From Lentimicrobiaceae bacterium (lineage in GTDB: Bacteria; Bacteroidota; Bacteroidia; Bacteroidales; JAGNHN01), in the NCBI GenBank assembly GCA_018001695.1, contig JAGNHN010000037.1:1-35840 (forward strand): a DNA stretch of 35,840 bases, written 5' to 3'. The notes beneath the pieces are model-generated. The model had not been told where the DNA came from and made no database searches. It worked only from the letters and a program-made list of their open reading frames with translations. Positions 343-16,289 of this stretch are shown here, in pieces. A program made the translations under genes and the position numbers. The number at the start of each line of letters is the position of its first letter. The stretch's first letter is position 1.

Positions 343-1278
343 ATGGATCTTCTAACACAAGAGAGCTCATTCATAAAGTTTGATGATGTGTATGAATCTG
401 AATGTATTATTAATACCGGTGATTTCGCTAGAAAAACATATTATGGTATTGAGCAAAACCCTCAATACTGTAGGTTTTGTAATAAGTGTTCGCCTTTAGT
501 TACCTTCCAAACCCAGGCTCACTTAATTCCAAAACTACTGGGCTCAAAGTATCTCCTAAGTTATTTTGAATGCGATAATTGCAATTCAGAATTCAAACAA
601 TATGACAGTGATCTGGCGAATTTCATCGGTGTATTACGAACGGTTACTGGGATATCAGGCAAATCTAGGGTGCCCAAATATAAGGATAGGGATCTAGTAA
701 TATATCAGTCAGGTGAAAAGGAGATAACATTTGTTTCTCCTGAGTTAACGAAGTCAATCCAAGAAGGTCATAAACAAATTATTATAAATGCAGTTAAACC
801 TAGTTTTAGGCCCATTAATGTATATAAATGCTTACTAAAGATGGGATTAAGCATTATTGCACATAATGAAGCTGAGAATTTTAGATCAGCATATGAGTTC
901 TTGTTGTCTAATAAAAACCAGAACTCAGAGGGAATACAAGTTTCAATGAATATACTTCAAGTATTTGTGCCAGGTCCTAGTTCGTTGAAATCACCAGTGC
1001 TTCATCTTTGGAGAAGAAAAGATAATAGGCTGGAATATCCTGAAAAAGTAGTCGTCTTACATGTAAAGAATTTAAAGTTTGGGTTTTATCTACCACTAAG
1101 TATAAATGACATGCATTTAGTAGGCAAAGAACTTAAAATGCCAATACTACAATTGGTTATGACAAAGGAATATATTGATAAATATGGCGGTCCAATATAT
1201 AAAATCGTCAATCTCGCTGAGAACAAGGTAATACAAGGAAAAGACGATATCCTTATTCTAAAACAGTATGATACATAG
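343..1278 (+). CDS. HNH endonuclease-like protein (HNH_5 type)
   Basis: This 311-residue protein has a zinc-ribbon-like HNH layout near the N-terminus. C43 and C46 (CRFC) are followed by AHLIPKLLG at 59-67 and by C77 and C80-N81 (CDNCN). The spacing and the H-I-P-x-x-L-G core match my recollection of HNH_5 nucleases, in which the first histidine is usually preceded by Glu; here it is Ala59. The remaining 220 residues have no motif I recognise. The gene is clearly richer in A and T than the rest of the window and stands alone about 220 bases upstream of the type I operon, which suggests horizontal acquisition into a defence island. Nuclease activity is inferred from the motif only; a structural zinc domain is possible. 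Confidence 0.55.
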   Translation: MDLLTQESSFIKFDDVYESECIINTGDFARKTYYGIEQNPQYCRFCNKCSPLVTFQTQAHLIPKLLGSKYLLSYFECDNCNSEFKQYDSDLANFIGVLRTVTGISGKSRVPKYKDRDLVIYQSGEKEITFVSPELTKSIQEGHKQIIINAVKPSFRPINVYKCLLKMGLSIIAHNEAENFRSAYEFLLSNKNQNSEGIQVSMNILQVFVPGPSSLKSPVLHLWRRKDNRLEYPEKVVVLHVKNLKFGFYLPLSINDMHLVGKELKMPILQLVMTKEYIDKYGGPIYKIVNLAENKVIQGKDDILILKQYDT

Positions 1279-1495: not shown

Positions 1496-4318
1496 ATGAG
1501 CAACCAAAGCCCGGAACAATTAGCAAGAGATAATATCGATAATCAACTAATTGCATGTGGTTGGATTATACAGGATAAATCCAGAATAAACCTGAATGCA
1601 GGTATTGGTGTAGCTGTACGTGAATACCAAACCGATGTTGGCCCGGCCGATTATGTGCTGTTTGTGGATGGTAAACCTGCCGGGGTTATTGAAGCGAAGC
1701 GTGAAGAAGAAGGCCATAAACTCACATATCATGAAGACCAGGCGGAAGATTATGCTAGCGCAAAGCTCAAATACCTGAAAAATGAGAGATTGACTTTTGT
1801 CTATTTAAGTACAGGTGCAGTAACTGCCATTACCGACTTCAGGGATCTCAAGCCAAGAGGCAGGATTGTATTCACCTTTCACCGTCCTGAGACTTTAAGA
1901 AACTGGTTAAAGAAGACCAAATCACTCCGCACCGCATTGCATGACCTAGACAGTTTGCCCACAAAAGGCCTGCGTGACTGCCAGATCAATGCCATCAATA
2001 ACCTTGAAAAATCATTCAAGCAAAACAAGCCCAGGGCACTAATACAGATGGCCACTGGTTCAGGAAAAACTTATACAGCCATCACGTCGGTCTATCGCCT
2101 GCTTAAACTCAAAGATGACAATGGTAACAATGTGGTGAACCGTATCCTGTTCCTTGTGGACACCAAGAACCTGGGTGAACAGGCTGAACAGGAGTTCATG
2201 AGTTACCTGCCTAATGACGATAACCGTAAGTTCACGGAGTTGTATGGGGTTCACAGGTTAAAATCAAAATATATTCCTGACGATAACCATGTTTACATCA
2301 GCACCATCCAGCGTTTGTATGCCGTGCTGAAGGGACAGGATCTTGACGAAAGCGCAGAAGAAGATAACCCGCACGAAAAATGGCAGCCCAAAGAAGTTCC
2401 CCCGGTTGAATACAATGCGAATCTGCCCGTTGAGTTTTTCGATTTCATCGTGATTGATGAGTGCCACCGCAGTATTTATAACCTGTGGATGCAGGTGTTG
2501 GATTACTTCGATGCTTTCCAGGTTGGTTTGACCGCGACACCCGATGCCAGGACTTTTGCCTATTTCCAACAAAACATGGTGTCGGAATATTCGCATGAAA
2601 TGGCCGTGGCTGATGGAGTGAATGTAGGCTATGATGTGTATTTGATTGAAACCAAAATCACCCAGCAAGGCGGAACACTATGGAAAGGGGCATACATTGA
2701 AACACGGGAAAAGCTTTCCCGAAAAAAGCGCCTGGAATTGCAGGATGAGGATGAGGTGTATTCAGCACAGCAGCTTGATAAGGATATTGTGAACCCCAAT
2801 CAGATAAGAACCATTATCCGAACCTTCAGGGATTATATGCCCGAAATGTTTCCAGACCGCTTCGACCAACATGGCACTTTTGAGGTTCCTAAAACTTTGA
2901 TTTTTGCCAAAACAGATAGCCATGCCGATGATATCATTCAGATTGTAAGGGAAGAGTTTAACGAGGAAAACCGCTTCTGCAAAAAAGTAACCTACAAAGC
3001 CACCGAAGACCCCAAATCAGTGCTGGCTCAGTTCCGCAACGACTATTATCCCCGCATAGCGGTAACCGTGGATATGATAGCCACCGGAACCGATGTGAAA
3101 CCCCTGGAATGTTTGCTCTTTATGCGGGATGTAAAAAGCCGCAATTACTTTGAGCAAATGAAAGGCCGTGGAACAAGGGTCATAAAATACGACGACCTGA
3201 AAAAAGTATCTCCCTGTGCCAGGATCACCAAGGACCATTTCGTGATTGTGGATGCCATTGGTGTGACCAAAAGCCTGAAAACCGACAGCCGTCCGCTGGA
3301 GAAAAAGCCCGGAGTGCCGTTGAAAGGTTTGCTGGAAGCCATTGCTGTTGGCGCAAGGGATGAGGACTTATTTACTTCACTGGCTAACCGTTTGACCCGT
3401 CTGGATAAACAGATCACCGAAAAAGAGAAAAAACAGTTTCAGGAAAAAACGGGTGGCACTACCCTTGTTCAGGTAGTAAAGGATTTGCTGAACGCATATA
3501 ATCCTGATACATTAGAAGCCATTGAGGAAACAGTGAAGGAAGAAAAACGTGGCGAAGCTCCCGTTGCCATTGAAGCGACCATAAAACAGCAGGTGGAGGA
3601 ATTACGAAACCAGGCAGCTAAAGTATTTACCGGCGAACTCAACGAGTTTATTGAAAATGTGCGAAGGGCACACGAACAGAAGATTGACCTGATCAACCCC
3701 GATGAGCTGCTCAACAAAGGCTGGGACAAGGAAAACACCCTCAAGGCTGAAGAAACCGTGGCTGCTTTTAAAATCTGGATTGAAAGCCACAAAGATGAAC
3801 TTATTGCCCTTCAGGTTTTTTACGGGCAGCCCTACCGCAGGCGTGAACTTACCTTCAGGATGATAAAAGAGCTTGCCGAAAAGATTGTGCAGGACAAACC
3901 CATGATTTCCCCCTTGAACGTGTGGCGGGCATATGAGCAACTGGATGCTTCGACCCTTCGACAGGCTCAGGGCTCAGCACCCATAGGAAGCCCCAAAAAC
4001 GAAATGGTGGCTTTGGTTGCCCTTATCCGCAGGGTAGCTGGTATTGATACAGTGTTGACCCCATACGATAAAACCATTGATCGTAACTTCCAGCAATGGT
4101 TGTTTAAAAAGCAGGCTGGAACGCTTAAGTTTACCAAAGAACAGATGGACTGGCTGTACATGCTCAAAGAGCAGATTGCCACTTCTGTGCATGTGGAGGC
4201 TGAAGACCTAGATTACACTCCTTTTGATGCCAAAGGAGGACGGGGCAAAATGTGGCAACTCTTTGGCGATCAAATGGAAATGATTATTAACGAACTCAAT
4301 GAGGCATTGGCGGCGTGA
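1496..4318 (+). CDS. hsdR: Type I restriction enzyme R subunit
   Basis: The protein is the motor and nuclease subunit of a type I restriction complex, which translocates DNA and cuts at a distance. In the 940 residues I see an N-terminal nuclease domain with D52 and E66-A-K68 (PD-(D/E)xK pattern), a superfamily 2 helicase with Walker A ATGSGKT at 186-192, DECH at 321-324 and LTATP at 345-349, and a later QMKGRGTR motif. The C-terminal part resembles the EcoEI-type HsdR C-terminus. Two points are odd. Residues 818-828 (ASTLRQAQGSA) are encoded by a palindromic repeat that appears to have entered the frame. The last 11 codons recur twice further downstream. The stop TGA overlaps the next ATG by one base. 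It heads the operon; I found no convincing promoter in 1279-1495. Confidence 0.95.
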   Translation: MSNQSPEQLARDNIDNQLIACGWIIQDKSRINLNAGIGVAVREYQTDVGPADYVLFVDGKPAGVIEAKREEEGHKLTYHEDQAEDYASAKLKYLKNERLTFVYLSTGAVTAITDFRDLKPRGRIVFTFHRPETLRNWLKKTKSLRTALHDLDSLPTKGLRDCQINAINNLEKSFKQNKPRALIQMATGSGKTYTAITSVYRLLKLKDDNGNNVVNRILFLVDTKNLGEQAEQEFMSYLPNDDNRKFTELYGVHRLKSKYIPDDNHVYISTIQRLYAVLKGQDLDESAEEDNPHEKWQPKEVPPVEYNANLPVEFFDFIVIDECHRSIYNLWMQVLDYFDAFQVGLTATPDARTFAYFQQNMVSEYSHEMAVADGVNVGYDVYLIETKITQQGGTLWKGAYIETREKLSRKKRLELQDEDEVYSAQQLDKDIVNPNQIRTIIRTFRDYMPEMFPDRFDQHGTFEVPKTLIFAKTDSHADDIIQIVREEFNEENRFCKKVTYKATEDPKSVLAQFRNDYYPRIAVTVDMIATGTDVKPLECLLFMRDVKSRNYFEQMKGRGTRVIKYDDLKKVSPCARITKDHFVIVDAIGVTKSLKTDSRPLEKKPGVPLKGLLEAIAVGARDEDLFTSLANRLTRLDKQITEKEKKQFQEKTGGTTLVQVVKDLLNAYNPDTLEAIEETVKEEKRGEAPVAIEATIKQQVEELRNQAAKVFTGELNEFIENVRRAHEQKIDLINPDELLNKGWDKENTLKAEETVAAFKIWIESHKDELIALQVFYGQPYRRRELTFRMIKELAEKIVQDKPMISPLNVWRAYEQLDASTLRQAQGSAPIGSPKNEMVALVALIRRVAGIDTVLTPYDKTIDRNFQQWLFKKQAGTLKFTKEQMDWLYMLKEQIATSVHVEAEDLDYTPFDAKGGRGKMWQLFGDQMEMIINELNEALAA
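3947..3978. repeat. REP-like palindromic element inside hsdR
   Basis: The stretch has a nested palindromic layout. An inner core TTCGA-cagg-CTCA (3957-3969) lies between CCCT (3954-3957) and AGGG (3969-3972). An outer TTCGA (3949-3953) and CTCA (3973-3976) lie between GC and GC. The same TTCGA-N4-CTCA core recurs at 4647-4722 outside genes. Read in the hsdR frame it gives STLRQAQGS. LRQAQG-like peptides are, to my knowledge, a typical translated signature of dispersed repeats in several phyla. The reading frame stays open across it. Confidence 0.6.
4283..4318 (+). repeat. hsdR 3'-end repeat, copy 1 (genuine hsdR terminus)
   Basis: These are the last codons of hsdR, encoding IINELNEALAA and TGA, with the stop overlapping the following ATG. 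Two related copies occur at 4725-4757 and 6375-6410. Counted by eye, copies 1 and 3 agree at 30 of 36 positions, and copies 1 and 2 at 26 of 33. Confidence 0.8.
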
Positions 4319-4608
4319 TGAAAGGTTGGATGTACATATTAGAGTGTGCTGATGGCAGTTACTATACCGGTAGTACAAATGAATTATCTTTAAGATTGGC
4401 ACAGCATCAAGCCGGCGTAGGAGCCAATCATACCAAAAAGCGATTACCTGTGAAGTTGGTGTATTTTGAAGAATTCCAAAGAATTGATGAAGCATTTCAC
4501 CGCGAAAAACAAGTTCAGGGCTGGAGCAGAAAAAAGAAAGAAGCTTTAATTCAATCAAGACACGAAAGTCTGCCAGCTTTATCAATTGCGTATAGGGATT
4601 TAAAATGA
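4318..4608 (+). CDS. GIY-YIG nuclease-domain protein
   Basis: This small protein (96 residues from the ATG at 4318) consists almost entirely of a GIY-YIG domain of the UPF0213/YhbQ type. It shows MYILEC at 5-10, YYTGST at 15-20, R26 followed by H30, T39-KKR-LPVKLVYFE, and E63 in the HREKQVQGW segment, where the family keeps its catalytic Glu. A GTG three bases upstream (4315) is also possible, but the ATG overlapping the hsdR stop (TGATG) is the better start. It lies between hsdR and tcmP and is followed by palindromic repeats and a partial copy of the hsdR 3' end. Similar stand-alone proteins have been linked to DNA repair; a role in this RM operon is unproven. Confidence 0.85.
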   Translation: MKGWMYILECADGSYYTGSTNELSLRLAQHQAGVGANHTKKRLPVKLVYFEEFQRIDEAFHREKQVQGWSRKKKEALIQSRHESLPALSIAYRDLK

Positions 4609-4646
4609 GAAATCTGAGATTATTTTCGGTGTCATTTAGAATATCA

Positions 4647-4722
4647 CTGGTGCCTTCGAGAACCTCAGGCACCAGGCCGGTGGTTGAGGCTCTCGCGGTG
4701 GTTGAGGCTCTCGAAACCACCG
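4647..4722. repeat. Cluster of TTCGA-N4-CTCA palindromic elements
   Basis: Two palindromes lie side by side between the GIY-YIG gene and tcmP. The first has arms CTGGTGCC (4647-4654) and GGCACCAG (4668-4675) around TTCGAgaacCTCA. In the second, an 18-base unit cggtggttgaggctctcg is directly repeated without error (4678-4695 and 4696-4713), and the second unit pairs with AACCACCG (4715-4722). Read on the other strand its core is TTCGAgagcCTCA. The conserved core with variable complementary arms is the pattern of REP-like dispersed elements. No T-tract follows, so these are not obvious terminators. Confidence 0.65.
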
Positions 4723-4724
4723 CT

Positions 4725-4757
4725 ATTAACGTACTAAATGAATCCTTGGCAGCGTAA
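4725..4757 (+). repeat. hsdR 3'-end repeat, copy 2
   Basis: This untranslated remnant encodes INVLNESLAA and TAA, matching the end of hsdR (IINELNEALAA) codon for codon. It begins directly after the palindromic cluster and ends exactly at the tcmP start, with the TAA overlapping the tcmP ATG by one base as at the real hsdR junction. Confidence 0.75.
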
Positions 4758-5665
4758 TGGAAAATGGTCTTCAAAATATGGCAAATGAACCTCCATCATC
4801 ATGGGGTGGTGATTGGACAGACAGAAAACTTGAAGCTTTTGCAAAGTACATTTCTGCTTATCTGACAATCATGAAACACTATCCGTATTGGAAGACCATT
4901 TATTTCGATGGTTTTGCCGGCAGTGGGGACCGACAAAAGAAACAATGCTTTTCACCCCTTTACAAACAATTATTTAGTGATGATGATGAAAATGAAGGAT
5001 ACAAAGGAGCAGCCGAAAGGGTATTGACATTGCCCGGCAGTAATCATTTTGATTTCTATTATTTTATTGATAAGGATCAGGCATCACTTAACAAGTTAGA
5101 AAACAAGATATCTACATTACAGCTAAGGAATGAAGGCACTATCCAATACAAAGTGGGAGATTGCAATATTTATCTGAATGAATTGGCAGTTGCCATGAAA
5201 AGCAAGCCAAAATTTTATGTAGCACTGGTCATGCTTGACCCCTTCGGAATGCAGATAAACTGGAGTTCCATAGCTCAGTTGGCTGATACCAGGACGGATA
5301 TTTGGATTTTGGTACCAACCGGTGTTATTGTAAACAGATTACTTGACAAAAATGCCAACTTGAAACACACATTTAAACTGCAATCGTTTTTTGGCCTTGA
5401 AGAAGAACATATCAGGAAGTACTTTTACACCGCCGAAACAGTAAACACTCTTTTTGGAGAGCGTGAATTAATCCGTAAGGTTGAGAAGCCAATTGGAAAA
5501 ATTGCCGAACTTTATATAAGACAATTAAAAGCTATTTGGAAACATGTGACAGAAAAACCTTTGATTTTAAAAAACAATAAGGGTGTGCCTTTATTTCATT
5601 TCGTCTTTGCTTCAAACAATGAAAACGCGGTAAAAATTGCCTCACAAATTATCCAAAGAACTTAG
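4757..5665 (+). CDS. tcmP: Three-Cys-motif partner protein (TcmP-like)
   Basis: This 302-residue protein matches the TcmP family, which is normally encoded beside a DUF5131 (Gp37/Gp68) protein, as here. Visible marks are WTDRKLEAFAKYI near 20-32, a glycine-rich YFDGFAGSG at 49-57 that resembles a nucleotide- or SAM-binding loop, FIDKD at 103-107, and LDPFG at 160-164 in the place of a methyltransferase motif IV. A Rossmann methyltransferase-like fold is an inference from these motifs. The biochemical role of the family is, as far as I know, not established. The ATG at 4757 overlaps the stop of an hsdR-tail remnant; an internal Met8 (4778) is an alternative start. Two bases separate it from the next gene, so the pair is probably co-translated. 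Confidence 0.8.
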   Translation: MENGLQNMANEPPSSWGGDWTDRKLEAFAKYISAYLTIMKHYPYWKTIYFDGFAGSGDRQKKQCFSPLYKQLFSDDDENEGYKGAAERVLTLPGSNHFDFYYFIDKDQASLNKLENKISTLQLRNEGTIQYKVGDCNIYLNELAVAMKSKPKFYVALVMLDPFGMQINWSSIAQLADTRTDIWILVPTGVIVNRLLDKNANLKHTFKLQSFFGLEEEHIRKYFYTAETVNTLFGERELIRKVEKPIGKIAELYIRQLKAIWKHVTEKPLILKNNKGVPLFHFVFASNNENAVKIASQIIQRT

Positions 5666-5667
5666 AA

Positions 5668-6390
5668 ATGGCTACAACAAAAATAGAATGGACTGAAAGC
5701 ACATGGAACCCGATAACCGGTTGTACAAAAATATCTACAGGTTGCAAGTTTTGCTATGCCGAAGTTATGACGAGAAGGCTCAAGGCAATGGGACAGGAAA
5801 AATACCGCAATGGTTTTGAACTTACATTGCACCCAGAAACACTACAAGAACCGTATTCATGGAAGAAACCAAAAATGATTTTTGTTAATTCCATGAGCGA
5901 CCTCTTTCATAAAGATGTGCCGATTGATTATATCCAAAAGGTTTTCAGAGTTATTAAGGATAATCCACAACATGTTTTTCAGGTATTAACAAAAAGAGCA
6001 GATGTTTTAAGATATTACGACAGTGAGAACTGGCTTGAATGGCCTCACAATTTATGGATGGGCGTAACGGTTGAAAACAACAATTTTATACATCGTATTG
6101 ATAATTTGAGGAATACCGGTGCAAGAGTTAAATTCCTTTCCTGCGAACCCTTGTTAAGTCCATTAGAAAACATGGATTTGAAGGCTATTGACTGGGTAAT
6201 AGTTGGTGGTGAAAGCGGCAGAACCCCAAGACCCTTGAAAGAAGAATGGGTTGTTGATATAAAAGAGCAATGCCAAAGGGCAAATGTTGCATTTTACTTT
6301 AAGCAGTGGGGCGGAACCAATAAAAAGAAAAGCGGCAGGCTGCTAGATGGTAAAAGGTACGATAAGATGCCGGAATTATTGACCAACTAA
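5668..6390 (+). CDS. DUF5131 / phage Gp37-Gp68 family three-Cys protein
   Basis: The 240-residue protein begins with the family signature WNPITGC and has three cysteines, C19, C26 and C29 (C-x6-C-x2-C), with the last directly before YAE. Other family marks are VNSMSDLFH at 73-81, VLTKR at 106-110, LSCEPLL at 157-163, GGESG at 180-184 and FKQWGG at 211-216. The cysteine triplet and the GGE motif recall radical-SAM proteins, although the spacing is not the canonical C-x3-C-x2-C; an iron-sulfur cluster is an inference. It forms a cassette with tcmP. Its last four residues and its stop come from an out-of-frame copy of the hsdR 3' end, which places the original module boundary near 6375. Confidence 0.85.
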   Translation: MATTKIEWTESTWNPITGCTKISTGCKFCYAEVMTRRLKAMGQEKYRNGFELTLHPETLQEPYSWKKPKMIFVNSMSDLFHKDVPIDYIQKVFRVIKDNPQHVFQVLTKRADVLRYYDSENWLEWPHNLWMGVTVENNNFIHRIDNLRNTGARVKFLSCEPLLSPLENMDLKAIDWVIVGGESGRTPRPLKEEWVVDIKEQCQRANVAFYFKQWGGTNKKKSGRLLDGKRYDKMPELLTN

Positions 6391-6410
6391 ATGAGGCGTT
6401 GGCAGCGTAA
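6375..6410 (+). repeat. hsdR 3'-end repeat, copy 3
   Basis: In its own frame this segment encodes IIDQLNEALAA and TAA, a good HsdR C-terminus. It overlaps the end of the DUF5131 gene in a different frame, and its TAA overlaps the hsdS ATG by one base. It is probably the original hsdR-hsdS junction, or one brought in with the cargo. Confidence 0.8.
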
Positions 6411-7762
6411 TGAGTGATATTTTTATTGATTTTGAGAAAACACCTAATGGATGGCTATTAAGCTCGATAGATGATTTTGCCAATGTTATCATGGGGCAAT
6501 CTCCACCATCTGAGACATACAATGAAGATGAAATCGGACTTCCTTTTTTCCAAGGCAAAGCAGAGTTTACAGAATTACACCCAATAGTAAGAAAATGGTG
6601 TGATTCTCCAAACAAAATTGCCGAACCTTATGATATATTATTGTCGGTTAGGGCTCCAGTTGGTGCTACAAACATTGCAAACGTAAAGTGTTGCATCGGT
6701 AGAGGTTTAGCAGCAATCAGATATCCCCAATGCAATAGATTTCTTTTTTACTTTTTCAGATTAATTGAAAAGAAACTTGATGAAAAAGGAACTGGAACAA
6801 CCTTTAGGGCGATTTCAGGTGATGTGATTAAAAATGCAAAGATTTTTCTCCCCCCCCTCCCCGAGCAGCACCGCATCGTAGCCAAAATAGAGGAGTTGTT
6901 CAGCAGTTTGGATAAAGGCATAGAGAGCCTGAAAACGGCACGGCAGCAACTCAAAGTCTATCGCCAGGCGGTGTTGAAATGGGCGTTTGAGGGGAAGCTG
7001 ACCAATAAGGATGTGAAAGATGGGGAGTTGCCGGCGGGGTGGGTGTCGAAACGAGTTAATGAAATCGCTTTTGTTAATCCAAAGCTGCCATTTGAAAATA
7101 TTTCAAATGACTTGGAGGTTTCTTTCCTTCCAATGAAACTTGTTGAAGAGGTTATCAATAAAATTAATCTAATTGAAATCAGAAAATATGGAGAAGTAAA
7201 AAAAGGCTTTACTCCAATGACAGACGGTGATGTGATTTTTGCTAAAATTACTCCTTGTATGGAGAATGGCAAGATTGCCATAGTTCATTCACTAAAAAAT
7301 CATATTGCATTTGGCTCCACAGAGTTTCATGTATTCAGATGTAAGGATGGCATTCTTAATTCATACTTATTTCATTTTCTTGTGCAGGAAAGTACTCGCC
7401 AAGAAGCAGAAAGAAATATGACTGGAGCTGTTGGACAAAGGCGTGTTCCCAAAAAATTTCTGGAAGAGTTAGTTATTCCAATTCCCCCGACTCTTGATGA
7501 ACAACACCTCATCGCCTCTGAAATCGAATCCCGCCTTTCAGTTTGCGACAAGATTGAAGAAAGCATCAGCACCGCCCTGCAACAATCCGAAGCCCTGCGG
7601 CAAAGCATTTTGAAAAAAGCATTTGAAGGTAAGCTGGTACCGCAAAACCCAGGGGATGAGCCGGCAAGTATGTTGTTGGAGAGGATAAGGGTGGAGAGGG
7701 AGACTATTTTGAAAACAACAAAGAGAACATCAAAACAGCGTAGAAATAAACAATTAAAATAG
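6410..7762 (+). CDS. hsdS: Type I RM specificity subunit S
   Basis: HsdS recognises the two halves of the target site and directs both methylation and cleavage. The 450 residues show the usual two target-recognition domains separated by conserved helical spacers. The central one contains LPPLPEQHRIVAKIEELF (about 146-163) and ends in KWAFEGKL. The C-terminal one contains DEQHLIASEIESRL and KKAFEGKLVPQNPGDEPA. The recognition domains are AT-rich while the spacer segments are richer in G and C, the usual mosaic of hsdS alleles. A run of eight C (6850-6857) at the domain boundary could slip. Translation starts at the ATG overlapping an hsdR-tail stop. Confidence 0.93.
   Translation: MSDIFIDFEKTPNGWLLSSIDDFANVIMGQSPPSETYNEDEIGLPFFQGKAEFTELHPIVRKWCDSPNKIAEPYDILLSVRAPVGATNIANVKCCIGRGLAAIRYPQCNRFLFYFFRLIEKKLDEKGTGTTFRAISGDVIKNAKIFLPPLPEQHRIVAKIEELFSSLDKGIESLKTARQQLKVYRQAVLKWAFEGKLTNKDVKDGELPAGWVSKRVNEIAFVNPKLPFENISNDLEVSFLPMKLVEEVINKINLIEIRKYGEVKKGFTPMTDGDVIFAKITPCMENGKIAIVHSLKNHIAFGSTEFHVFRCKDGILNSYLFHFLVQESTRQEAERNMTGAVGQRRVPKKFLEELVIPIPPTLDEQHLIASEIESRLSVCDKIEESISTALQQSEALRQSILKKAFEGKLVPQNPGDEPASMLLERIRVERETILKTTKRTSKQRRNKQLK
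6850..6857 (+). repeat. C8 homopolymer tract in hsdS
   Basis: Eight consecutive C residues, then T and four more C, encode the LPPLP segment at the junction of the first recognition domain and the central conserved region. Gain or loss of one C would shift the frame and remove the second recognition domain. Confidence 0.6.
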
Positions 7763-7767
7763 CTAAA

Positions 7768-8745
7768 ATGGCAACCAATCCTGAAAACAAAGCCTTTCTT
7801 ATAGGCAATGGTATAAATCGTGCTAATTCAAATGGTGTAAAATCTTGGAAGGAATTATTAGAAGATTTATCACAATCCTTCAGCGTGAAGATCGATTTGA
7901 CAAATGACTTGAAGCCTTTTCCATTGAGTTTTGAAGAAATCCTATTTAGGTCTACAGGAGAGTTTGATTTCAAGATACGAGAAATTAAAGAAAGAATTGC
8001 AAAATATTTTAGACTTACACCAAAAAGCGATCTTCATGAACTATTTGTAAATTCCGGAATAACAAATATTTTGACAACTAATTATGATTACGCTTTTGAA
8101 AAGGTCTTAATAGAGGATTTTAACAATGACAAAAAAGATACTGCGAGAAGTACTGAAGAAACTCTAAATAGCATAAAACGCAGAACAGTATTCAAGGATT
8201 CCAACTTGTCTGTGTGGCATATTCATGGAGAAATTAATCAACGATTGTACCCCTCGAAAAAAGTTTCGACTGCTAATTCAATAATGATAGGCTATGAGCA
8301 TTATGGTAAGTATTTTTATGAGATTCAAAGTTATATAAGTGGCAAGAAGTATGAAAATGAAATGAGTATTTTAGATAAGGCAAGAGATAGTAACTACGCC
8401 CCAAAGTCTTGGATAGATTTTTTCTTTATGGGAGAGCTGCATATAGCTGGGTTATCTTTCGATTTTTCCGAATATCATTTATGGTGGCTGCTGAATTTCA
8501 GAGCAAAGCAAATAAAACAAGAGAGGCTAAAAAGTCTTTCTAAAATTTATTATTATCATAGTATTATGCCCGAAGTCGATGAATCAGAACGAGGAAAGTT
8601 TGTAAATCAAGTCATCAAGAGAAAGATGAATCAAGCCAAAAGTGATTTATTTAAAGCATTAGGTATAGAAATAGTACCTATACAAATACAATTGAATGAC
8701 TACAGAGATTTTTATGAACAAGTTTGCAATAGAGCGCTAAGATGA
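7768..8745 (+). CDS. SIR2-like domain protein embedded in the RM operon
   Basis: The 325-residue protein carries the marks of the bacterial SIR2-like (SIR2_2) defence domain. These are IGNGINR at 12-18 for nucleotide binding, TTNYD at 103-107, WHIHG at 150-154 with a candidate catalytic His, and GLSFDFSE at 228-235. Proteins with this domain in Thoeris, DSR, pAgo and related defence systems bind or degrade NAD+, so NAD+ depletion on phage infection is the likely activity (inference). No second recognised domain is visible. The gene starts 5 bases after hsdS, and its stop overlaps the hsdM start (ATGA), so it sits tightly between two essential RM genes. That suggests coupling to the state of the RM complex. 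Confidence 0.8.
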   Translation: MATNPENKAFLIGNGINRANSNGVKSWKELLEDLSQSFSVKIDLTNDLKPFPLSFEEILFRSTGEFDFKIREIKERIAKYFRLTPKSDLHELFVNSGITNILTTNYDYAFEKVLIEDFNNDKKDTARSTEETLNSIKRRTVFKDSNLSVWHIHGEINQRLYPSKKVSTANSIMIGYEHYGKYFYEIQSYISGKKYENEMSILDKARDSNYAPKSWIDFFFMGELHIAGLSFDFSEYHLWWLLNFRAKQIKQERLKSLSKIYYYHSIMPEVDESERGKFVNQVIKRKMNQAKSDLFKALGIEIVPIQIQLNDYRDFYEQVCNRALR

Positions 8746-10244
8746 CCAACGAAACCAATAATACATCCAGCATCATAAGCAAAGTATGGAGTTTCTGCAC
8801 TATACTCAAAGATGATGGCGTCAGCTACGGCGATTACCTGGAACAGCTTACCTACTTACTCTTCCTGAAAATGGCAGACGAATTTGGCCGCCCACCATAC
8901 AACCGCCAGCTTCCTATACCAAAAGAGTACAACTGGGAAAGCCTGGCAGCCAAGAGAGGCGCAGACCTTGAGAGCCATTACACCACCTTGCTGAGGGTGT
9001 TATCGCACGCAAAAGGCATACTGGGTCAGATATTTATCAAAAGCCAGAATAAAATTCAGGACCCTGCCAAGCTCTACAAGCTCATTGACATGATCAACAA
9101 AGAGCAATGGAGTACCATGGGCGCCGATGTGAAAGGCAAAATATATGAAGGGCTGCTGGAAAAGAACGCAGAGGACACCAAGAGCGGTGCAGGCCAATAC
9201 TTCACACCAAGGGCGCTGATCAGGGCTATGGTGGAATGTGTAAGGCCGGAACCCATGAAAATAATTGCCGATCCGGCATGTGGCACCGGAGGGTTTTTCC
9301 TGGCAGCATATGATTTTATTGCCAATCCCAAAAACTACTCACTCGATCGTGACCAGAAGGAGTTCCTGAAACTGAAAACCTTTTATGGTAACGAAATTGT
9401 TGCCAACACAAGGCGCATGGCTTTGATGAACCTGTTCCTGCACAATGTGGGCGATTTCGAGATTGACAGCTTTATTTCGCCTGCTGATGCACTGGTATCT
9501 GATACAGGCTTAAGAGCCGATTATGTGCTGGCCAATCCACCTTTTGGCAAGAAAAGCAGCATGACCTTTACAAACGATGAAGGAGAGCAGGACAGCGAAG
9601 ACCTGACTTATAACCGTCAGGACTTTTGGGTTACCACCAGCAACAAGCAACTGAACTTTGTGCAGCACATACGCACCATGCTTAAATCGGACGGTAAAGC
9701 CGCAGTGGTGGTTCCCGACAATGTGTTGTTTGAAGGCGGCGCCGGAGAAACCATCCGCAAGAAATTGCTGGAGACAACAAATCTCCACACCATCCTTCGC
9801 CTGCCTACCGGTATTTTCTACAAACAGGGCGTGAAGGCAAATGTGCTGTTCTTTGACAACAAGCCCGCTTCTAAAGACCCGCATACAAAAGAAATCTGGT
9901 TCTATGACTTCAGAACCAATATGCACTTCACCCTTAAAAAGAACCCGCTTCAGTTTGAAGACTTGAAGGACTTCGTTGAGTGTTACAATCCTGAAAACAT
10001 TCACAGGCGCAAGGAGACCTATCATCCCGAAACCAATCCCGAAGGGCGTTGGAGGAAATTCACCTACAATGACATCATAGAGCGTGACAAAACCAGCCTC
10101 GACATAGCCTGGCTAAAAGACAAAAGCCTGACCGATCTTGATAACCTCCCCGATCCTGATGTTTTAGCAGGTGACATCATAGAAAACCTGCAAGCAGGGA
10201 TTGAGAGCTTCAGGGAAGTAATGCTAAGGATAAATGGAGACTAA
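8742..10244 (+). CDS. hsdM: Type I RM methyltransferase subunit M
   Basis: HsdM transfers a methyl group from SAM to adenine N6 as part of the M2S complex. In its 500 residues the N-terminal HsdM_N helical region (about 10-130) is followed by an N6 adenine methyltransferase domain with GQYFTPR at 151-157, SAM-binding DPACGTGG at 177-184 and catalytic NPPFG at 265-269. The length is normal for the family. The ATG overlaps the SIR2-like stop by four bases. It is unusual that hsdM comes last and is separated from hsdS by another gene. The next gene is convergent, and no clear terminator lies in the 212-base gap. Confidence 0.95.
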   Translation: MTNETNNTSSIISKVWSFCTILKDDGVSYGDYLEQLTYLLFLKMADEFGRPPYNRQLPIPKEYNWESLAAKRGADLESHYTTLLRVLSHAKGILGQIFIKSQNKIQDPAKLYKLIDMINKEQWSTMGADVKGKIYEGLLEKNAEDTKSGAGQYFTPRALIRAMVECVRPEPMKIIADPACGTGGFFLAAYDFIANPKNYSLDRDQKEFLKLKTFYGNEIVANTRRMALMNLFLHNVGDFEIDSFISPADALVSDTGLRADYVLANPPFGKKSSMTFTNDEGEQDSEDLTYNRQDFWVTTSNKQLNFVQHIRTMLKSDGKAAVVVPDNVLFEGGAGETIRKKLLETTNLHTILRLPTGIFYKQGVKANVLFFDNKPASKDPHTKEIWFYDFRTNMHFTLKKNPLQFEDLKDFVECYNPENIHRRKETYHPETNPEGRWRKFTYNDIIERDKTSLDIAWLKDKSLTDLDNLPDPDVLAGDIIENLQAGIESFREVMLRINGD

Positions 10245-10456: not shown

Positions 10457-13360
10457 CTAATTGAAAATCTCCTTCACCTTCACCCTGCGGACTTCCCCAT
10501 ATTTTGTCATCCAGTCGCTGCCGATGCGCTTCTCATTTCCCACGATGGTGGTGACCACAGGTTTAGTGGAAAACTGCCGCACATAACAGTCCATGATATC
10601 CGTAAAATGCATCTGCTGGTAGTGGTTGATCCATTGACTTCTCGGATCCTGGCCGTAACCGCGGTCGATCCATTCTGCCACCTGGGTTGAAACCCTCCTG
10701 AATGTGGGTTTGTTGCTGTTGATGGATTGTATCAGCGAGGACCGGACCATTTCCATGCGGTCGTGCTTACCGGGAACATCGCCCAGGATGCCATGGATCA
10801 CCTCTACCGCTTCGCGGGTTTTATCAGCCTGTGTACCTACAAAGGCAGTAAGTCCCACGCGCTCACCATCATAATAAGGTGCGTAAAGCTGTGCCCCGAC
10901 GGCATATGCCAGCGAGCGCAATTCCCTGACCTCCTGGAAGAGGACACTGTGCATGCCGCCGTCCAGGTATTCCTTGTAGGCATTCAGGTTGGCGCGTTCC
11001 ATCAGGTCGGCGTTCTGGCCGGCAACATAGAAGTAATTCTTACTTTGAATGGCTTTCTTATCAGGCAGGAAAAACACCGTGGCTTTTGCATAGTCTATGT
11101 ATTCCCTGCGCACCGGCGAGAGGCTCTGACGGCTGATGCGCCCCAGATCCAGACGGGTGGTCACAACGTCCTGTACCTCATTGAGCGGGCGGCGGCCGGA
11201 ATAGTGGATCGTGAGGGCGGTTTCCAGCACAGGCTGCATGGCTTCCTTGAGTATTTCCGGACTGAGGGCTCCGACTTCCTTGAGGCTGAGGCGGGTCAGG
11301 AAGGGGGACTTCTCTCCCATCATGGCATAGCTGTAGAGTGCCCTGCCCACGGTCTCAGGGTCTTTGGCCTCCACTTTGCGATTGGCTTGCTCCATCTGAT
11401 AAAGGACTTTCATCCGCGACGGATCCAGTTCAGGGTTGTAAAGCCATGAAGCCAGATAATCCATGACCTGTTCCAGGTGCTCTTCCGGTCCACTGCAGCG
11501 TACCGTAAAGGCACCTTCGCTGGCCGAAGCGCTGTAGGAGGCGCCCAGGGCCTGCATTTTGCGGGAAAAATCCTTAAATGGCATTGTCTCACTTCCGCAC
11601 AGACCATAATAGGCGGCTACCTGGTCGAGTATAGGATGCTCATGGGTGCCGGTTCCAAAGACCAGTTGAAGCTCAAACAAGGTATTGATGGGGTTTTCAA
11701 CCCAGTACATATCAATCTTGTCGCCGATGGACAGTATGTTTACATCCAGATGGGGCTCGCCGGGCGTCCCAAATTTCACAAAAGCCGGGGCCTGGACAGG
11801 TACCTCGATGTCCTGCAAACTCATGGCATATTCCGATTGCCTGTCGGTATTGCGGGAAGGGATAGGCTCAAAGGGTGGTTTAAGAGGACCTGGTTTTGCC
11901 GGTAAGCCGGTTTTGGAATAGAAAACAAGATGGTCATCACCCAGGTATTGCCTGGCAACCCGCACCACCTCCTCACGGGTGATATGGGACACCCTGTCTG
12001 GGTAATCCTGTACCAGTTTCCAGTCCATGTGTTTCACAAATGCCATCAGCATCATATAACCGCGCTTGTATTGGTCTTCGCTGTTTTGTTCCTGCTCAAC
12101 GCGGATCTGAGTTTTAACAGCCTCCAGCAATGCCTCATCGAAGCGGCCTTCGTGCAAATCACTTATCTTCTCCTTCACCAGCTTTTCAGCTGCAGGCAAT
12201 GATTGCCCAACAATCTTGGGGATGAAGAAAATGATCTGAGCTCCGGCATCTACCTGCATATTGGCAATGGCATAAGCACCCAGCAACTGGTTATTGACAC
12301 TCAGTTCATCCAGGGCTCCGGTCTGGCTTCCATTGGTGAGCATTTTGTTGAGGACATCCAGGGCAGGACGGTCAGGATGCGTGATGGAAGGCAGGCGGTA
12401 TCCGAGCAGCCCAAACCGGATCGGGGTGAGGCGCTGCTGAACAAGGGTGCGGCCTTTGAAAGGGGCAATCTTCGGCCGGTCAGAATCAGGAGGCAGTTGC
12501 CCGGTCCTCCATGCTCCAAACAAGCGTTCTATCTGTGGTTTCACTTCATCTGACCGGAAATTTCCACTCAGGATCAGGGCCATGTTGTTGGCCACATACC
12601 AGGTCTCAAAGAACTCATTCATTTTCCGGAGTGAGGGGGTCTTGAGGTGTTCAGGATATCCGATAATGGGCACACCATAAGGATGATCCGGGTAGAAAGC
12701 ACGGTTGAACGCCTCAAATGCGGCCGCAAACCGGTTGTCTTTGTACATATTGTACTCTTCATACACCGTTTCGAGCTCTGACTGGAAGAGCCGGTAAACC
12801 GGCTTGATGAAGCGATGGCTGTATACTTCCAGCCATTTGTTGATCTGATTCGAGGGGAAGATGTTGTAATAGACGATCTCTTCATTCCCGGTGCCGGCGT
12901 TGACCATGGTACTCCCCATTTCATCCAGGATCTTACCCAGCTCATTAGGGATCGCATACTCTGCTGCCTTGATAGATAAGCGGTTGATATTCTTTTGAAT
13001 ATCTTCCTGTCGCCTGGGATCTTTCTCTTTAGAAAGCCAATCATACAACAAAGTAATGCTGTCAAGGTAATGCCGCTCAGTATCATAGTCCAGGGTACCG
13101 ATACGGTCTGTCCCCTTAAACATGATATGTTCGAAATAATGCGCTATGCCTGTGGCATCTGCCGGATCATTCTTGCTACCGGCCCTCACGGCAACGGCGC
13201 CGAAGACATTGGGCAAGGAATGGTCCTCGTTCAGGTAAACAGTCAGGCCGTTCTCAAGGCGATAGATCTCTGTGTGAAGCGGGTCTTGCCCGAATAAAAA
13301 CGGCATGCCCTGTAGCAGCAGGGTCGCGATAAAACACAATACCAGGTTCGATTTCTTCAT
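10457..13360 (-). CDS. Secreted M16-family zinc metallopeptidase
   Basis: This 967-residue protein is a two-repeat M16 (inverzincin/pitrilysin-like) peptidase. From the ATG at 13360 it has an N-terminal signal peptide (MKKSNLVLCF with a hydrophobic core to about residue 25), so it is probably periplasmic. The zinc motif HYFEH is at 74-78, and a Glu-rich ETVYEE near 197-202 should supply the third ligand. The second half resembles the inactive M16 repeat (HYSGRRP, then REVRELRSLAYAVGAQ). The frame extends 28 residues upstream to 13444, but that extension has no signal-peptide character and the internal Met gives a standard one, so I prefer 13360. It is transcribed divergently from the M49-like gene. 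Confidence 0.9.
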   Translation of the reverse strand: MKKSNLVLCFIATLLLQGMPFLFGQDPLHTEIYRLENGLTVYLNEDHSLPNVFGAVAVRAGSKNDPADATGIAHYFEHIMFKGTDRIGTLDYDTERHYLDSITLLYDWLSKEKDPRRQEDIQKNINRLSIKAAEYAIPNELGKILDEMGSTMVNAGTGNEEIVYYNIFPSNQINKWLEVYSHRFIKPVYRLFQSELETVYEEYNMYKDNRFAAAFEAFNRAFYPDHPYGVPIIGYPEHLKTPSLRKMNEFFETWYVANNMALILSGNFRSDEVKPQIERLFGAWRTGQLPPDSDRPKIAPFKGRTLVQQRLTPIRFGLLGYRLPSITHPDRPALDVLNKMLTNGSQTGALDELSVNNQLLGAYAIANMQVDAGAQIIFFIPKIVGQSLPAAEKLVKEKISDLHEGRFDEALLEAVKTQIRVEQEQNSEDQYKRGYMMLMAFVKHMDWKLVQDYPDRVSHITREEVVRVARQYLGDDHLVFYSKTGLPAKPGPLKPPFEPIPSRNTDRQSEYAMSLQDIEVPVQAPAFVKFGTPGEPHLDVNILSIGDKIDMYWVENPINTLFELQLVFGTGTHEHPILDQVAAYYGLCGSETMPFKDFSRKMQALGASYSASASEGAFTVRCSGPEEHLEQVMDYLASWLYNPELDPSRMKVLYQMEQANRKVEAKDPETVGRALYSYAMMGEKSPFLTRLSLKEVGALSPEILKEAMQPVLETALTIHYSGRRPLNEVQDVVTTRLDLGRISRQSLSPVRREYIDYAKATVFFLPDKKAIQSKNYFYVAGQNADLMERANLNAYKEYLDGGMHSVLFQEVRELRSLAYAVGAQLYAPYYDGERVGLTAFVGTQADKTREAVEVIHGILGDVPGKHDRMEMVRSSLIQSINSNKPTFRRVSTQVAEWIDRGYGQDPRSQWINHYQQMHFTDIMDCYVRQFSTKPVVTTIVGNEKRIGSDWMTKYGEVRRVKVKEIFN

Positions 13361-13503
13361 GACGCTATTTTCCAGATGGATGATGTATTCGTATTCGTTG
13401 CGAATATAAGCAGCTCCGGCCTGTGAACAGGCGGTATCAGGCAAACATATTGAAAATCTTTAAAGGGTGAATTTTTGTCATGTATCCTGTCAGTTTTGTC
13501 ATA

Positions 13504-13556
13504 TTTTGAGGAGAATTCCTTAATTTCGTGGTCCTCAAAACGGAGCATCCTCAAAA
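13504..13556. promoter_or_regulatory. Three TCCTCAAAA sites around a possible promoter
   Basis: TTTTGAGGA at 13504-13512 is the exact reverse complement of TCCTCAAAA, which occurs at 13532-13540 and again at 13548-13556 (16 bases further on). Between the first two lies TAATTTCG (13521-13528), one base off the Bacteroidota -7 element TAnnTTTG. The last copy ends 11 bases before the M49-like start codon. The layout suggests an operator, or an mRNA hairpin at the 5' end. Confidence 0.35.
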
Positions 13557-13567
13557 TCAGTTGCAAT

Positions 13568-15217
13568 ATGATCAAAAATTGTATGTATGGCGCCATGTTC
13601 GCCACTTTACTCCTTGTTGCAGCCTGCCAGGGAGGGACCAAAGAAACCACCCAAACACCTTCCCCGATGGAAGAAAAGCTGGCCAAATACGTAAAAGTTC
13701 CATTGACCACCGATCTTTCGGTGCTGACAGCGGAAGAACGGCAAATGCTGCCCCTGTTGTTCGATGCAGCAGCCATCATGGATGAACTGTTCTGGCTACA
13801 GGCCTTTGGGGACAAGCACTCCCTGCTCGACACCATTTCGGACACTGCAGCCCTGCAGTTTGCCATGATCAATTATGGCCCCTGGGACCGTCTGGACGGA
13901 CAGAAGCCCTTCCTGGGCGGATATGGAGAGAAACCGAAAGGAGCCAATTTTTATCCGGCCGACATGACCAAGGAGGAATTCGACGCTTTCGAAGATCCAA
14001 ACAAGAACAGTCAGTTCACCCTCATCCGCCGCGATGACCAGGGTAAGCTCAAATCGGTATGGTACCATGAAGCCTATGCCGAACAGCTTCAAAAAGCTGC
14101 CAACCTCGTCAGCATGGCGTCGGATCTGGCCATGGACAAAGGATTGTTCAATTATCTCACCCTCCGGGCCCAGTCACTGCTCACAAGCGATTACCGCTCT
14201 TCAGATATGGCCTGGCTTGATATGAAAAACAACACCATTGACTTTGTTGTTGGTCCGATCGAAAACTACGAAGACGCCCTCTACAACAACAAAGCTGCTT
14301 TTGAGGCTTTCATTCTTATCAAAGACAAGGAATGGAGCAGCAAACTGGACCGTTATACAGCCTTCCTGCCCGATTTTCAGAAGAACCTTCCTGTCGAACC
14401 AGCCTATAAGAATGAGACACCGGGCACTTCAGGTAACCAGCTGAATGTATATGATGTCGTTTACTATGCCGGCGATTGCAATGCAGGCAGTAAAACCATC
14501 GCCATCAACCTGCCCAACGATGAGGTGGTCAGGGAACAAAAGGGTTCGAGGAAACTGCAGCTTAAGAATGCCATGCAGGCCAAGTTTGATAAGATCCTGG
14601 TTCCCATTGCCAACGAGCTGATCGATGAATCACAGCGGCAGCATATCACGTTTGATGCTTTCTTTGCCAATACCATGTTCCATGAAGTGGCACATGGACT
14701 GGGACTAAGCTATCTGAGCAAGGACAAGAAGGTTACCGTTCGTGAAGCCCTGCAGGATTCCTATACATCTATCGAAGAAGGCAAGGCAGATATTCTGGGC
14801 TTATATATTGTCAACGAGTTGTATGAAAAGGGAGAGTTAGGGGAAGTGGACATCCGTGACTACTATACGACTTTCATGGCCAGCATATTCAGATCCGTTC
14901 GTTTTGGTGTTTCCAGTGCTCATGGGAAGGCCAATATGATGCGGTTCTACTTCTTCCAGGAGAAGGGTGCTTTTGTCCGCAATGCAGAGACAGGCACTTA
15001 CAAGATCGATTATGACAAGATGAAGGAGGCCATGAACGAGCTGACGACCCTGATCCTGACCATTCAGGGTGATGGCGACTATCAGAAGGCCACAGAATGG
15101 ATCGCCCGGGATGGGGCTATCAAAGCTGAACTGCAGGGAGACCTTGACCGGCTTTCCGGGAAGAACATCCCGGTGGATGTTGTTTTTGAGCAAGGCAGGC
15201 AGGTACTGGGAATCTGA
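13568..15217 (+). CDS. M49-like (dipeptidyl-peptidase III-related) lipoprotein peptidase
   Basis: The 549-residue product starts with a lipoprotein signal peptide; the lipobox LVAAC puts the lipidated Cys at 20. The metal-site signature is FHEVAHGLG at 371-379 followed by SIEEGKAD at 401-408. The second motif matches the M49 pattern EExxAD/E. The first is odd: M49 enzymes usually have HExxxH, with the second His five residues on, but here it is four residues on (HExxH). Bacteroidota members with this motif are often annotated simply as zinc-dependent hydrolases. The frame could start at 13475, but only the ATG at 13568 gives a signal peptide. A hairpin follows the stop, and gpsA is next in the same direction. 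Substrate unknown. Confidence 0.8.
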   Translation: MIKNCMYGAMFATLLLVAACQGGTKETTQTPSPMEEKLAKYVKVPLTTDLSVLTAEERQMLPLLFDAAAIMDELFWLQAFGDKHSLLDTISDTAALQFAMINYGPWDRLDGQKPFLGGYGEKPKGANFYPADMTKEEFDAFEDPNKNSQFTLIRRDDQGKLKSVWYHEAYAEQLQKAANLVSMASDLAMDKGLFNYLTLRAQSLLTSDYRSSDMAWLDMKNNTIDFVVGPIENYEDALYNNKAAFEAFILIKDKEWSSKLDRYTAFLPDFQKNLPVEPAYKNETPGTSGNQLNVYDVVYYAGDCNAGSKTIAINLPNDEVVREQKGSRKLQLKNAMQAKFDKILVPIANELIDESQRQHITFDAFFANTMFHEVAHGLGLSYLSKDKKVTVREALQDSYTSIEEGKADILGLYIVNELYEKGELGEVDIRDYYTTFMASIFRSVRFGVSSAHGKANMMRFYFFQEKGAFVRNAETGTYKIDYDKMKEAMNELTTLILTIQGDGDYQKATEWIARDGAIKAELQGDLDRLSGKNIPVDVVFEQGRQVLGI

Positions 15218-15250
15218 TCATCTCCAGGGGCATTTATGGCCCCGGATGAT
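15217..15250 (+). terminator. Hairpin between the M49-like gene and gpsA
   Basis: ATCATC (15217-15222) pairs with GATGAT (15245-15250), and inside it GGGGC (15227-15231) pairs with GCCCC (15239-15243). It follows the M49-like stop directly. No U-tract follows, so it may be an RNA-stabilising or weak termination hairpin rather than a full intrinsic terminator. Confidence 0.3.
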
Positions 15251-15276
15251 GAATCTATAAAAAGGGAGGACGTTTC

Positions 15277-16266
15277 ATGGGAGATATTGCCGTTATTGGT
15301 GGTGGTTCCTGGGGCACAGCTTTGGTGAAGCTGCTGCTGGAGAATCAGTCTGCCGTACATTGGTGGGTGAGAAGAAAGGAAACGGAGGACCATATCCGCA
15401 CGTATCACCGCAATCCCAACTATCTCAGTTATCTTGAACTGGATGCAAACCGTATACATCTGTATACCGACATTGGAAGCGTGGTACAAAAGGCGGACAC
15501 ACTGATTTTCGCCGTCCCGGCAGCTTTTCTGCCGGATTGCCTGGAAGGGGTCAAACCTGAAGACCTCAAGGGAAAGACCATCGTCTCGGCCATCAAGGGC
15601 ATTGTTCCGGAAGAGAATCTCACTATTGGGAACTACTTCAGGACCTTTTTTAAGGTGGATGAGAACCATATCGGCATCATTGCAGGCCCTTGTCACAGCG
15701 AGGAAGTGGCCATGGAAAAACTGTCATTCCTGACCATTGCCTTCAATGATCCAGGCAAGGCAGAGAAGCTGATGACGATGCTTTCCAGCCGGTATATGCG
15801 GATCAAGGCAACACGGGACGTCAGTGGTGTCGAATATGCCGCAGTCCTGAAAAATATCTTCGCCATTGCCAACGGGATCTGTGTCGGACTGGGATACGGC
15901 GACAACTTTCAGTCGGTGCTGATTGTCAATGCCATCCAGGAAGCCCGGCGCTTTCTGGATAAGGTCAATATCATCGAACGCGACATCAATGATGCCGTGT
16001 ATACCGGCGACCTGATTGTAACCGCTTATTCCAAGTTCAGCCGCAACAGGATCTTCGGTCATATGATCGGGAAAGGCTATTCAGTCAAATTTGCCCAGAT
16101 TGAGATGCGCATGGTCGCCGAAGGCTATTATGCCACAAAAGGCATCTGGGAAATCAACCGCCAGATGGGCGTCTATATGCCCATCGCAGATGCGGTCCAT
16201 AAGATCCTATACGAAAAACAGTCGGCCTCCGTTGTGATGGGCAGACTGGCGGAGATACTGCATTAA
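15277..16266 (+). CDS. gpsA: NAD(P)H-dependent glycerol-3-phosphate dehydrogenase
   Basis: GpsA reduces dihydroxyacetone phosphate to sn-glycerol 3-phosphate, the backbone of phospholipids, in the cytosol. The 329-residue length is normal. The dinucleotide-binding loop GGGSWG is at 8-13. Further marks are SAIKGI for substrate binding, AGPCHSEEVA in the middle, and the C-terminal helical domain with YAAVLKNIFAIANG, which carries the catalytic Lys. A strong ribosome-binding site (gggagg) lies just before the ATG. The sigma-54 regulator gene follows after 23 bases, so gpsA probably heads the operon running to secG. Confidence 0.95.
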   Translation: MGDIAVIGGGSWGTALVKLLLENQSAVHWWVRRKETEDHIRTYHRNPNYLSYLELDANRIHLYTDIGSVVQKADTLIFAVPAAFLPDCLEGVKPEDLKGKTIVSAIKGIVPEENLTIGNYFRTFFKVDENHIGIIAGPCHSEEVAMEKLSFLTIAFNDPGKAEKLMTMLSSRYMRIKATRDVSGVEYAAVLKNIFAIANGICVGLGYGDNFQSVLIVNAIQEARRFLDKVNIIERDINDAVYTGDLIVTAYSKFSRNRIFGHMIGKGYSVKFAQIEMRMVAEGYYATKGIWEINRQMGVYMPIADAVHKILYEKQSASVVMGRLAEILH

Positions 16267-16289
16267 CCTAAAGCAAGTCAATACAGGCA

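What the first reader, a model, noticed from the sequence alone, without database searches (positions are those of the whole stretch)
7768..8745. SIR2-like NADase candidate embedded between hsdS and hsdM
A protein with IGNGINR, TTNYD, WHIHG and GLSFDFSE motifs is encoded 5 bases after hsdS and overlaps hsdM by four bases. Known precedent: PrrC, an anticodon nuclease, is encoded inside a type I locus in E. coli and is released when a phage blocks the RM complex. By analogy, the SIR2-like protein may deplete NAD+ when restriction is inhibited. The placement inside the core genes, not beside them, suggests functional coupling.
Basis: partly seen in the sequence, partly recalled or inferred. Interest (0 to 1): 0.7.

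Follow-up and report, generated by a model that had tools for sequence, protein, structure and literature searches.

The report
SIR2 gene carried inside restriction operon
A bacterial DNA-cutting defence operon carries, between two of its core genes, a gene for a probable NAD+-destroying enzyme; relatives of this operon carry other defence or toxin genes in exactly the same place, so the spot behaves like an exchangeable cargo slot and the SIR2 gene is one passenger of many.

Summary
In detail: a 325-aa SIR2-like protein is encoded at 7768-8745, 5 nt after hsdS and overlapping hsdM by 4 nt. Pfam SIR2_2 and an AlphaFold model matching ThsA (Z 19.3), KomC and DSR2, with N105 and H153 invariant in 46 homologues, support an NADase-type effector; activity is untested.

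Of 80 homologues from a scan of ~85,000 species, none lies by type I genes recognisably like this operon's, so the family does not need Hsd. In relatives of this operon it is the hsdS-hsdM gap that recurs as a cargo site: 30 of 48 loci (30 of 33 outside one family) carry genes there, e.g. Septu PtuAB, Fic, RhuM, GmrSD, YhcG; only this one carries SIR2. The closest sister clade sits beside type IIG, type III and BREX systems, so some link to modification-based defence is plausible.

Most likely: an exchangeable second-line NADase, co-expressed with the restriction enzyme. A PrrC-like guard role is possible but undemonstrated. Linkage of Sir2 to type I RM was noted in 2012 (PMC3506569). New member of a known kind.

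The parts
7768..8745 (+). SIR2-like (SIR2_2) single-domain protein, 325 aa; probable NADase effector; cargo in the hsdS-hsdM slot
   Evidence: G+C 32.3% (third positions 28%) against 46-47% in hsdR and hsdM
6410..7762 (+). hsdS, type I specificity subunit, 450 aa, upstream border of the slot
8742..10244 (+). hsdM, type I N6-adenine methyltransferase, 500 aa, downstream border of the slot; ATGA overlap with the SIR2 stop
1496..4318 (+). hsdR, type I restriction subunit, 940 aa
4315..4608 (+). GIY-YIG protein, 97 aa, in the second cargo interval (hsdR-hsdS)
   Evidence: GIY-YIG 1.5e-17
4757..5665 (+). TcmP, three-Cys-motif partner protein (PADLOC candidate PDC-M41A), in the hsdR-hsdS interval
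   Evidence: TIGR04474 5.4e-36; PDC-M41A 2.1e-106
5668..6390 (+). DUF5131 protein (PDC-M41B), partner of TcmP, in the hsdR-hsdS interval
   Evidence: DUF5131 1.2e-100; PDC-M41B 1.3e-124
343..1278 (+). HNH_5 endonuclease-like protein upstream of hsdR; part of the island, membership of the operon uncertain
   Evidence: HNH_5 5.6e-07; 217-nt gap to hsdR; G+C 34%

Best explanation
7768-8745 encodes a single-domain SIR2-superfamily enzyme that probably hydrolyses NAD+ and acts as an abortive-infection type effector. It is carried as exchangeable cargo in the gap between hsdS and hsdM of an R-S-M type I operon and is probably co-transcribed and translationally coupled with them. Restriction is the first line; the SIR2 protein is a second line with a trigger of its own (not known), gained by cassette exchange in which hsdR and hsdM stay and the stretch between them is replaced. 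Shown: SIR2 homology, predicted fold and conserved active-site residues, gene order, foreign base composition, recurrent variable cargo in the same gap of related operons. Inferred: co-expression, NADase activity, role in phage defence, independence of the trigger.
For: SIR2_2 and ThsA matches; AlphaFold pLDDT 88.5, PDB Z 19.3 to ThsA over 258 residues, 18.6 to KomC, about 16 to DSR2; G13, N14, N17, N105, H153, G154 invariant in 46 homologues. Cargo slot: 30 of 48 loci with hsdS and hsdM in view carry genes between them, 30 of 33 outside one family (f19); 45 of 50 ORFs of 100 aa or more in the slot run with the operon; median gaps 1 nt after hsdS and 9 nt before hsdM. Cargo includes PtuA+PtuB (L145, L246; PtuA with a PtuB-like ORF in L265), SoFic, PDC-S02/YhcG, PD-Lambda-2_B, RhuM x5, GmrSD x3, SLFN/AlbA with DUF4062 x4. 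Against L127 (HsdM 88% identical) hsdR and hsdM align end to end at 78% DNA identity while between them only two short HsdS blocks align, and its slot cargo is RhuM plus a 23S-IVP protein. SIR2 G+C 32%, hsdM 47%. Homologues occur without RM neighbours, e.g. in a Salmonella ICE.
Against: The closest sister clade (99/95 support) lies beside type IIG, type III and BREX systems, which suggests more than random parking. No NADase or phage assay was found for any close homologue. Some slot cargo (IS200-like Y1 proteins) is not defence. In Chitinophaga the homologue is a settled chromosomal gene next to AlkB, which does not look like mobile defence.
Confidence: 0.6

Rival explanations
1. PrrC-like guard: the SIR2 protein is held silent by, or monitors, the Hsd complex and destroys NAD+ when a phage anti-restriction protein disables it.
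For: Embedded with 5-nt gap and 4-nt overlap. PrrC precedent, silenced by a linked type Ic enzyme and activated by phage Stp (PMC2610378; PMC12707154). A single domain with no sensor domain of its own. The sister clade adjoins several kinds of modification-based systems.
Against: PrrC orthologues are invariably linked to type Ic RM (PMC2610378); this family is not. The same gap hosts many unrelated proteins, among them systems named for defence elsewhere such as Septu. The sister genes sit by systems with different subunits (type III, IIG, BREX), so one shared contact surface is unlikely.
Confidence: 0.2
2. Stabilising toxin: constitutively toxic SIR2 restrained by a co-expressed Hsd subunit, so loss of the operon kills the cell (addiction of the RM island).
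For: Slot cargo elsewhere includes toxin families and toxin-antitoxin genes such as HigB-like plus HTH/M78 (L206). Makarova et al. proposed repeated toxin displacement in RM systems (PMC3506569).
Against: Homologues exist as lone genes without a conserved partner, which a constitutive toxin could not afford.
Confidence: 0.08
3. Not an NADase: another SIR2 chemistry (deacylation, ADP-ribosylation) or a DNA-damage function.
For: In Chitinophaga the homologue lies 7-60 nt after an AlkB-like dioxygenase, in some species also after an HhH-GPD glycosylase. The superfamily includes deacetylases (CobB Z 10.3).
Against: The closest structures are defence NADases (ThsA, KomC, DSR2, Avs5, SIR2-HerA) with mostly higher Z.
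Confidence: 0.1

Closest known systems
Embedded defence genes in type I RM loci (TgvAB in V. cholerae VPI-2, PMC11411939; C. jejuni rlo genes; Payne et al. 2024 as cited there)
   Same: Foreign defence genes placed between core hsd genes without breaking them; the embedded unit can act on its own (TgvAB does).
   Different: Here the cargo is a single SIR2 gene in the S-M gap of an R-S-M operon; TgvAB is a two-gene GmrSD-like system.
PrrC-EcoprrI
   Same: Probable toxic effector encoded inside a type I locus.
   Different: PrrC is an ABC-ATPase anticodon nuclease and is invariably linked to type Ic RM; this is a SIR2 protein whose family is mostly unlinked to RM.
ThsA (Thoeris) SIR2 domain
   Same: Same fold, aligned active-site Asn and His, best structural match (Z 19.3).
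   Different: ThsA has a second C-terminal domain that senses a TIR-made signal and a ThsB partner; neither is present here.
KomC (Kongming)
   Same: Single-domain SIR2 effector of similar size, Z 18.6.
   Different: KomC works with KomB and dITP; no KomA- or KomB-like neighbour here.
Sir2 genes linked to type I RM noted by Makarova et al. 2012 (PMC3506569)
   Same: The association and a suicide/dormancy role were already proposed.
   Different: That paper gives neither this family nor the recurrent S-M slot in the passages read.

Membership tests
SIR2 NADase effector superfamily | SIR2_2 / Rossmann SIR2 fold | tested here: met
   Pfam 3.1e-07 above cut-off; fold matches
SIR2 NADase effector superfamily | Active-site Asn and His and the GxxN nucleotide loop conserved | tested here: met
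   N105, H153, G13, N14, N17 invariant in 46 homologues; TTNYD and the HG motif align with ThsA
SIR2 NADase effector superfamily | NAD+ hydrolysis | not testable with these tools
   needs an enzyme assay
Thoeris (ThsA) | C-terminal signal-sensing domain and a TIR partner gene | tested here: not met
   325-aa single domain; ThsA match covers only residues 6-158; no TIR gene among the Pfam-scanned neighbours
SIR2-HerA, SPARSA, DSR2 | HerA or pAgo partner, or a large C-terminal extension | tested here: not met
   neighbours are hsd, GIY-YIG, TcmP, DUF5131; protein ends at 325 aa
Kongming (KomABC) | KomC-like single SIR2 domain | tested here: met
   Z 18.6 over 245 residues
Kongming (KomABC) | KomA and KomB partner genes | tested here: not met
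   no such families in the neighbours scanned
PrrC-type RM guard | Encoded within a type I RM locus | tested here: met
PrrC-type RM guard | Orthologues invariably linked to type I RM | tested here: not met
   no Hsd-like neighbours in 80 homologous loci
PrrC-type RM guard | Silenced by Hsd and activated by an anti-restriction protein | not testable with these tools
   needs experiments
Embedded defence cargo of type I RM operons | Intact core hsd genes with unrelated genes inserted between them, exchanged between relatives | tested here: met
Embedded defence cargo of type I RM operons | Cargo confers phage resistance | not testable with these tools
   needs phage assays

The most novel reading that the evidence does not exclude
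The long-form SIR2 clade (window, L017, L018, L019, L051) is a dedicated guard of DNA-modification-based immunity: it senses failure or inhibition of type I, IIG, III or BREX systems through a common signal (for example accumulating unmodified or damaged DNA, or a phage anti-restriction protein) and then depletes NAD+, and the hsdS-hsdM gap is a general guard slot whose occupants are coupled to the Hsd enzyme.
Probability: 0.1. Interest if true: 0.8.

Novelty: new member of a known kind. Interest (0 to 1): 0.42.

Why it matters
It shows that a place inside type I operons that might look like evidence for a dedicated partnership is a recurrent cargo slot, filled in related operons by Septu, Fic, RhuM, GmrSD and others. 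That gives a clear null model for guilt-by-position inside RM operons, and a ready list of slot occupants for finding new defence genes. If the SIR2 product or other occupants turned out to be controlled by Hsd, the slot would become a general system for studying guards of restriction enzymes beyond PrrC.

Tried and rejected
Single-sequence scan of genome contigs for SIR2 found nothing; an alignment was needed. PHROGs gave no family. No close DNA copy of the Salmonella homologue in E. coli. No Rfam match and no tRNA, so no RNA element or tRNA integration site was seen in the window. Promoter- and terminator-like sites are at chance level, so a private promoter for SIR2 could not be judged. Viral contigs added few SIR2 relatives. 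Rejected: ThsA/Thoeris, SIR2-HerA, SPARSA, DSR2 and Kongming as memberships (partners or domains absent). Rejected: a SIR2-specific association with hsd loci. Searches of the paper library for SIR2 with hsdS and for 'between hsdS and hsdM' with RhuM and Fic found no description of this slot; subscription papers are not held.

Full report
Observation. The ORF at 7768-8745 is as described: 325 aa, 5 nt after the hsdS stop, ATGA overlap with hsdM. The order in the window is HNH_5, hsdR, GIY-YIG, TcmP, DUF5131, hsdS, SIR2, hsdM. Catalytic motifs of HsdR and HsdM are present, so the restriction system may well be active.

The protein. Pfam SIR2_2 matches above its cut-off, PADLOC gives ThsA at 7.6e-10, and phmmer aligns the TTNYD and HG motifs with ThsA. 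In 46 homologues G13, N14, N17, N105, H153 and G154 are invariant. The AlphaFold model has mean pLDDT 88.5; its best solved matches are ThsA (Z 19.3), KomC (18.6) and DSR2 (about 16), against CobB deacetylase at 10.3. A single-domain NADase-type effector is the best reading. No activity has been tested here.

Is the family tied to type I RM? No. One alignment-based scan of about 85,000 species gave 104 relatives, 80 kept. With the window's HsdR, HsdS, HsdM, TcmP and DUF5131 as blastp queries, no neighbour within about 8 kb was recognised in any of them. This control detects type I genes like those of the window, not every RM gene. Contexts are diverse: a Salmonella ICE, a Vibrio replicon, settled chromosomal sites in Chitinophaga. 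In 395 genomes of the class, SIR2_2 occurred in 68. By their coordinates none of the matches outside the window lies beside an HsdM match, and the 30 fetched as loci show no Hsd neighbour in about 1.5 kb.

The closest relatives differ. The window protein groups with L017, L018, L019 and L051 (99/95 support; long branches, so some caution). L019 follows an Eco57I/MmeI-type methylase and precedes a GmrSD gene. L051 follows a type III-like mod and res pair, but is truncated to 173 aa. L017 is convergent with a BREX cluster of brxL, pglZ and an Eco57I-type methylase, and itself follows an SbcC-like gene. L018 is at a contig end and uninformative. As a control, 107 neighbours of 38 other family members show no DNA methylase family in the 25 most frequent Pfam families, where every family from rank 8 on has a single member; blastp with the IIG, mod and other sister-clade proteins found IIG-like genes near L031 and L039 and a GmrSD-like gene near L022 only. 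Counting the window itself, four of four informative loci of this clade lie by modification-based systems. This is suggestive, but few, and the blastp queries came from those same loci.

The operon has a cargo slot. HsdM relatives were collected from class and phylum samples and from plasmids, and the intervals read. Among 48 loci with both hsdS and hsdM in view, 30 (the window included) have more than 250 nt between them. Fifteen of the 18 close S-M pairs come from one family, f19 (family labels); outside it the count is 30 of 33. Of 50 ORFs of at least 100 aa in the slot, 45 run with the operon; median gaps are 1 nt after hsdS and 9 nt before hsdM. ORF calls were mechanical, so single gaps may be off. 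PGAP-annotated plasmids agree independently: S-DUF262-M in Gemmobacter, S-GIY-YIG-M in Streptomyces, S-AAA-x-M in Pantoea. Two more distant HsdM (about 42%) have the order R-M-S with no gap. In viral contigs the slot is often empty (6 loci) and sometimes filled (L264; L257 without an S call).

What the slot holds. RhuM (5 members), Fic, SLFN_AlbA with DUF4062 (4 loci), GmrSD_N (3), IS200-like Y1 proteins, YhcG, a HigB-like/HTH-M78 pair, HIRAN, and by PADLOC PtuA with PtuB (L145, L246), PtuA in L265 (its partner ORF resembles the PtuB-like protein of L246 by blastp), SoFic, PDC-S02, PD-Lambda-2_B. SIR2 was seen only in the window.

Exchange. L127 has an HsdM 88% identical to the window's and an HsdR of 84%. 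hsdR and hsdM align end to end at 78% DNA identity, but of the 4.4 kb between them only two short HsdS blocks align. SIR2 has G+C 32% and third-position G+C 28%, against 46/50 in hsdR and 47/57 in hsdM. A genome of the same genus keeps the downstream genes (window 13583-16715) but has no close hsdM there or elsewhere.

Interpretation. The position is explained by the slot, so position alone does not argue for a SIR2-Hsd partnership. Co-expression and complementary defence are the economical reading, as shown for TgvAB embedded in the V. [quoted passage not shown] A PrrC-like guard (PMC2610378, PMC12707154) stays possible, the more so because the protein has no sensor domain and its nearest relatives accompany other modification systems. 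Makarova et al. 2012 already noted Sir2 enzymes linked to type I RM and proposed coupling of immunity with suicide or dormancy (PMC3506569). Hence: new member of a known kind, moderate interest.

Noticed in passing
window 4315-6390: A second cargo interval lies between hsdR and hsdS (GIY-YIG, TcmP, DUF5131); a TcmP-like and DUF5131 pair recurs there in L128 and L132.
   Followed up: partly
L036:7370-8909, L088:6689-8876 and other Chitinophaga loci: The short-form SIR2 homologue is a conserved chromosomal gene a few nt after an AlkB-like 2OG-Fe(II) dioxygenase, in L088 also after an HhH-GPD glycosylase: a possible DNA-repair connection.
   Followed up: partly
L051:7998-8519: SIR2 homologue truncated to 173 aa directly after a type III-like mod/res pair.
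   Followed up: partly
L145:3735-6226, L246:6442-8996, L265:6400-8996: Septu PtuA lies between hsdS and hsdM of type I operons, with a PtuB by PADLOC in L145 and L246 and a PtuB-like ORF by blastp in L265.
   Followed up: partly
L128:6893-9018, L131:6505-8554, L138:6706-8855, L207:6295-8348: A two-gene DUF4062 plus SLFN_AlbA unit recurs in the S-M slot of four loci; a candidate uncharacterised defence pair.
   Followed up: no
window 10457-15217: In a genome of the same genus (L271) the genes from window 13583 on are conserved, but no match to the M16-type peptidase gene (10457-13444) or the RM operon was seen beside them.
   Followed up: partly
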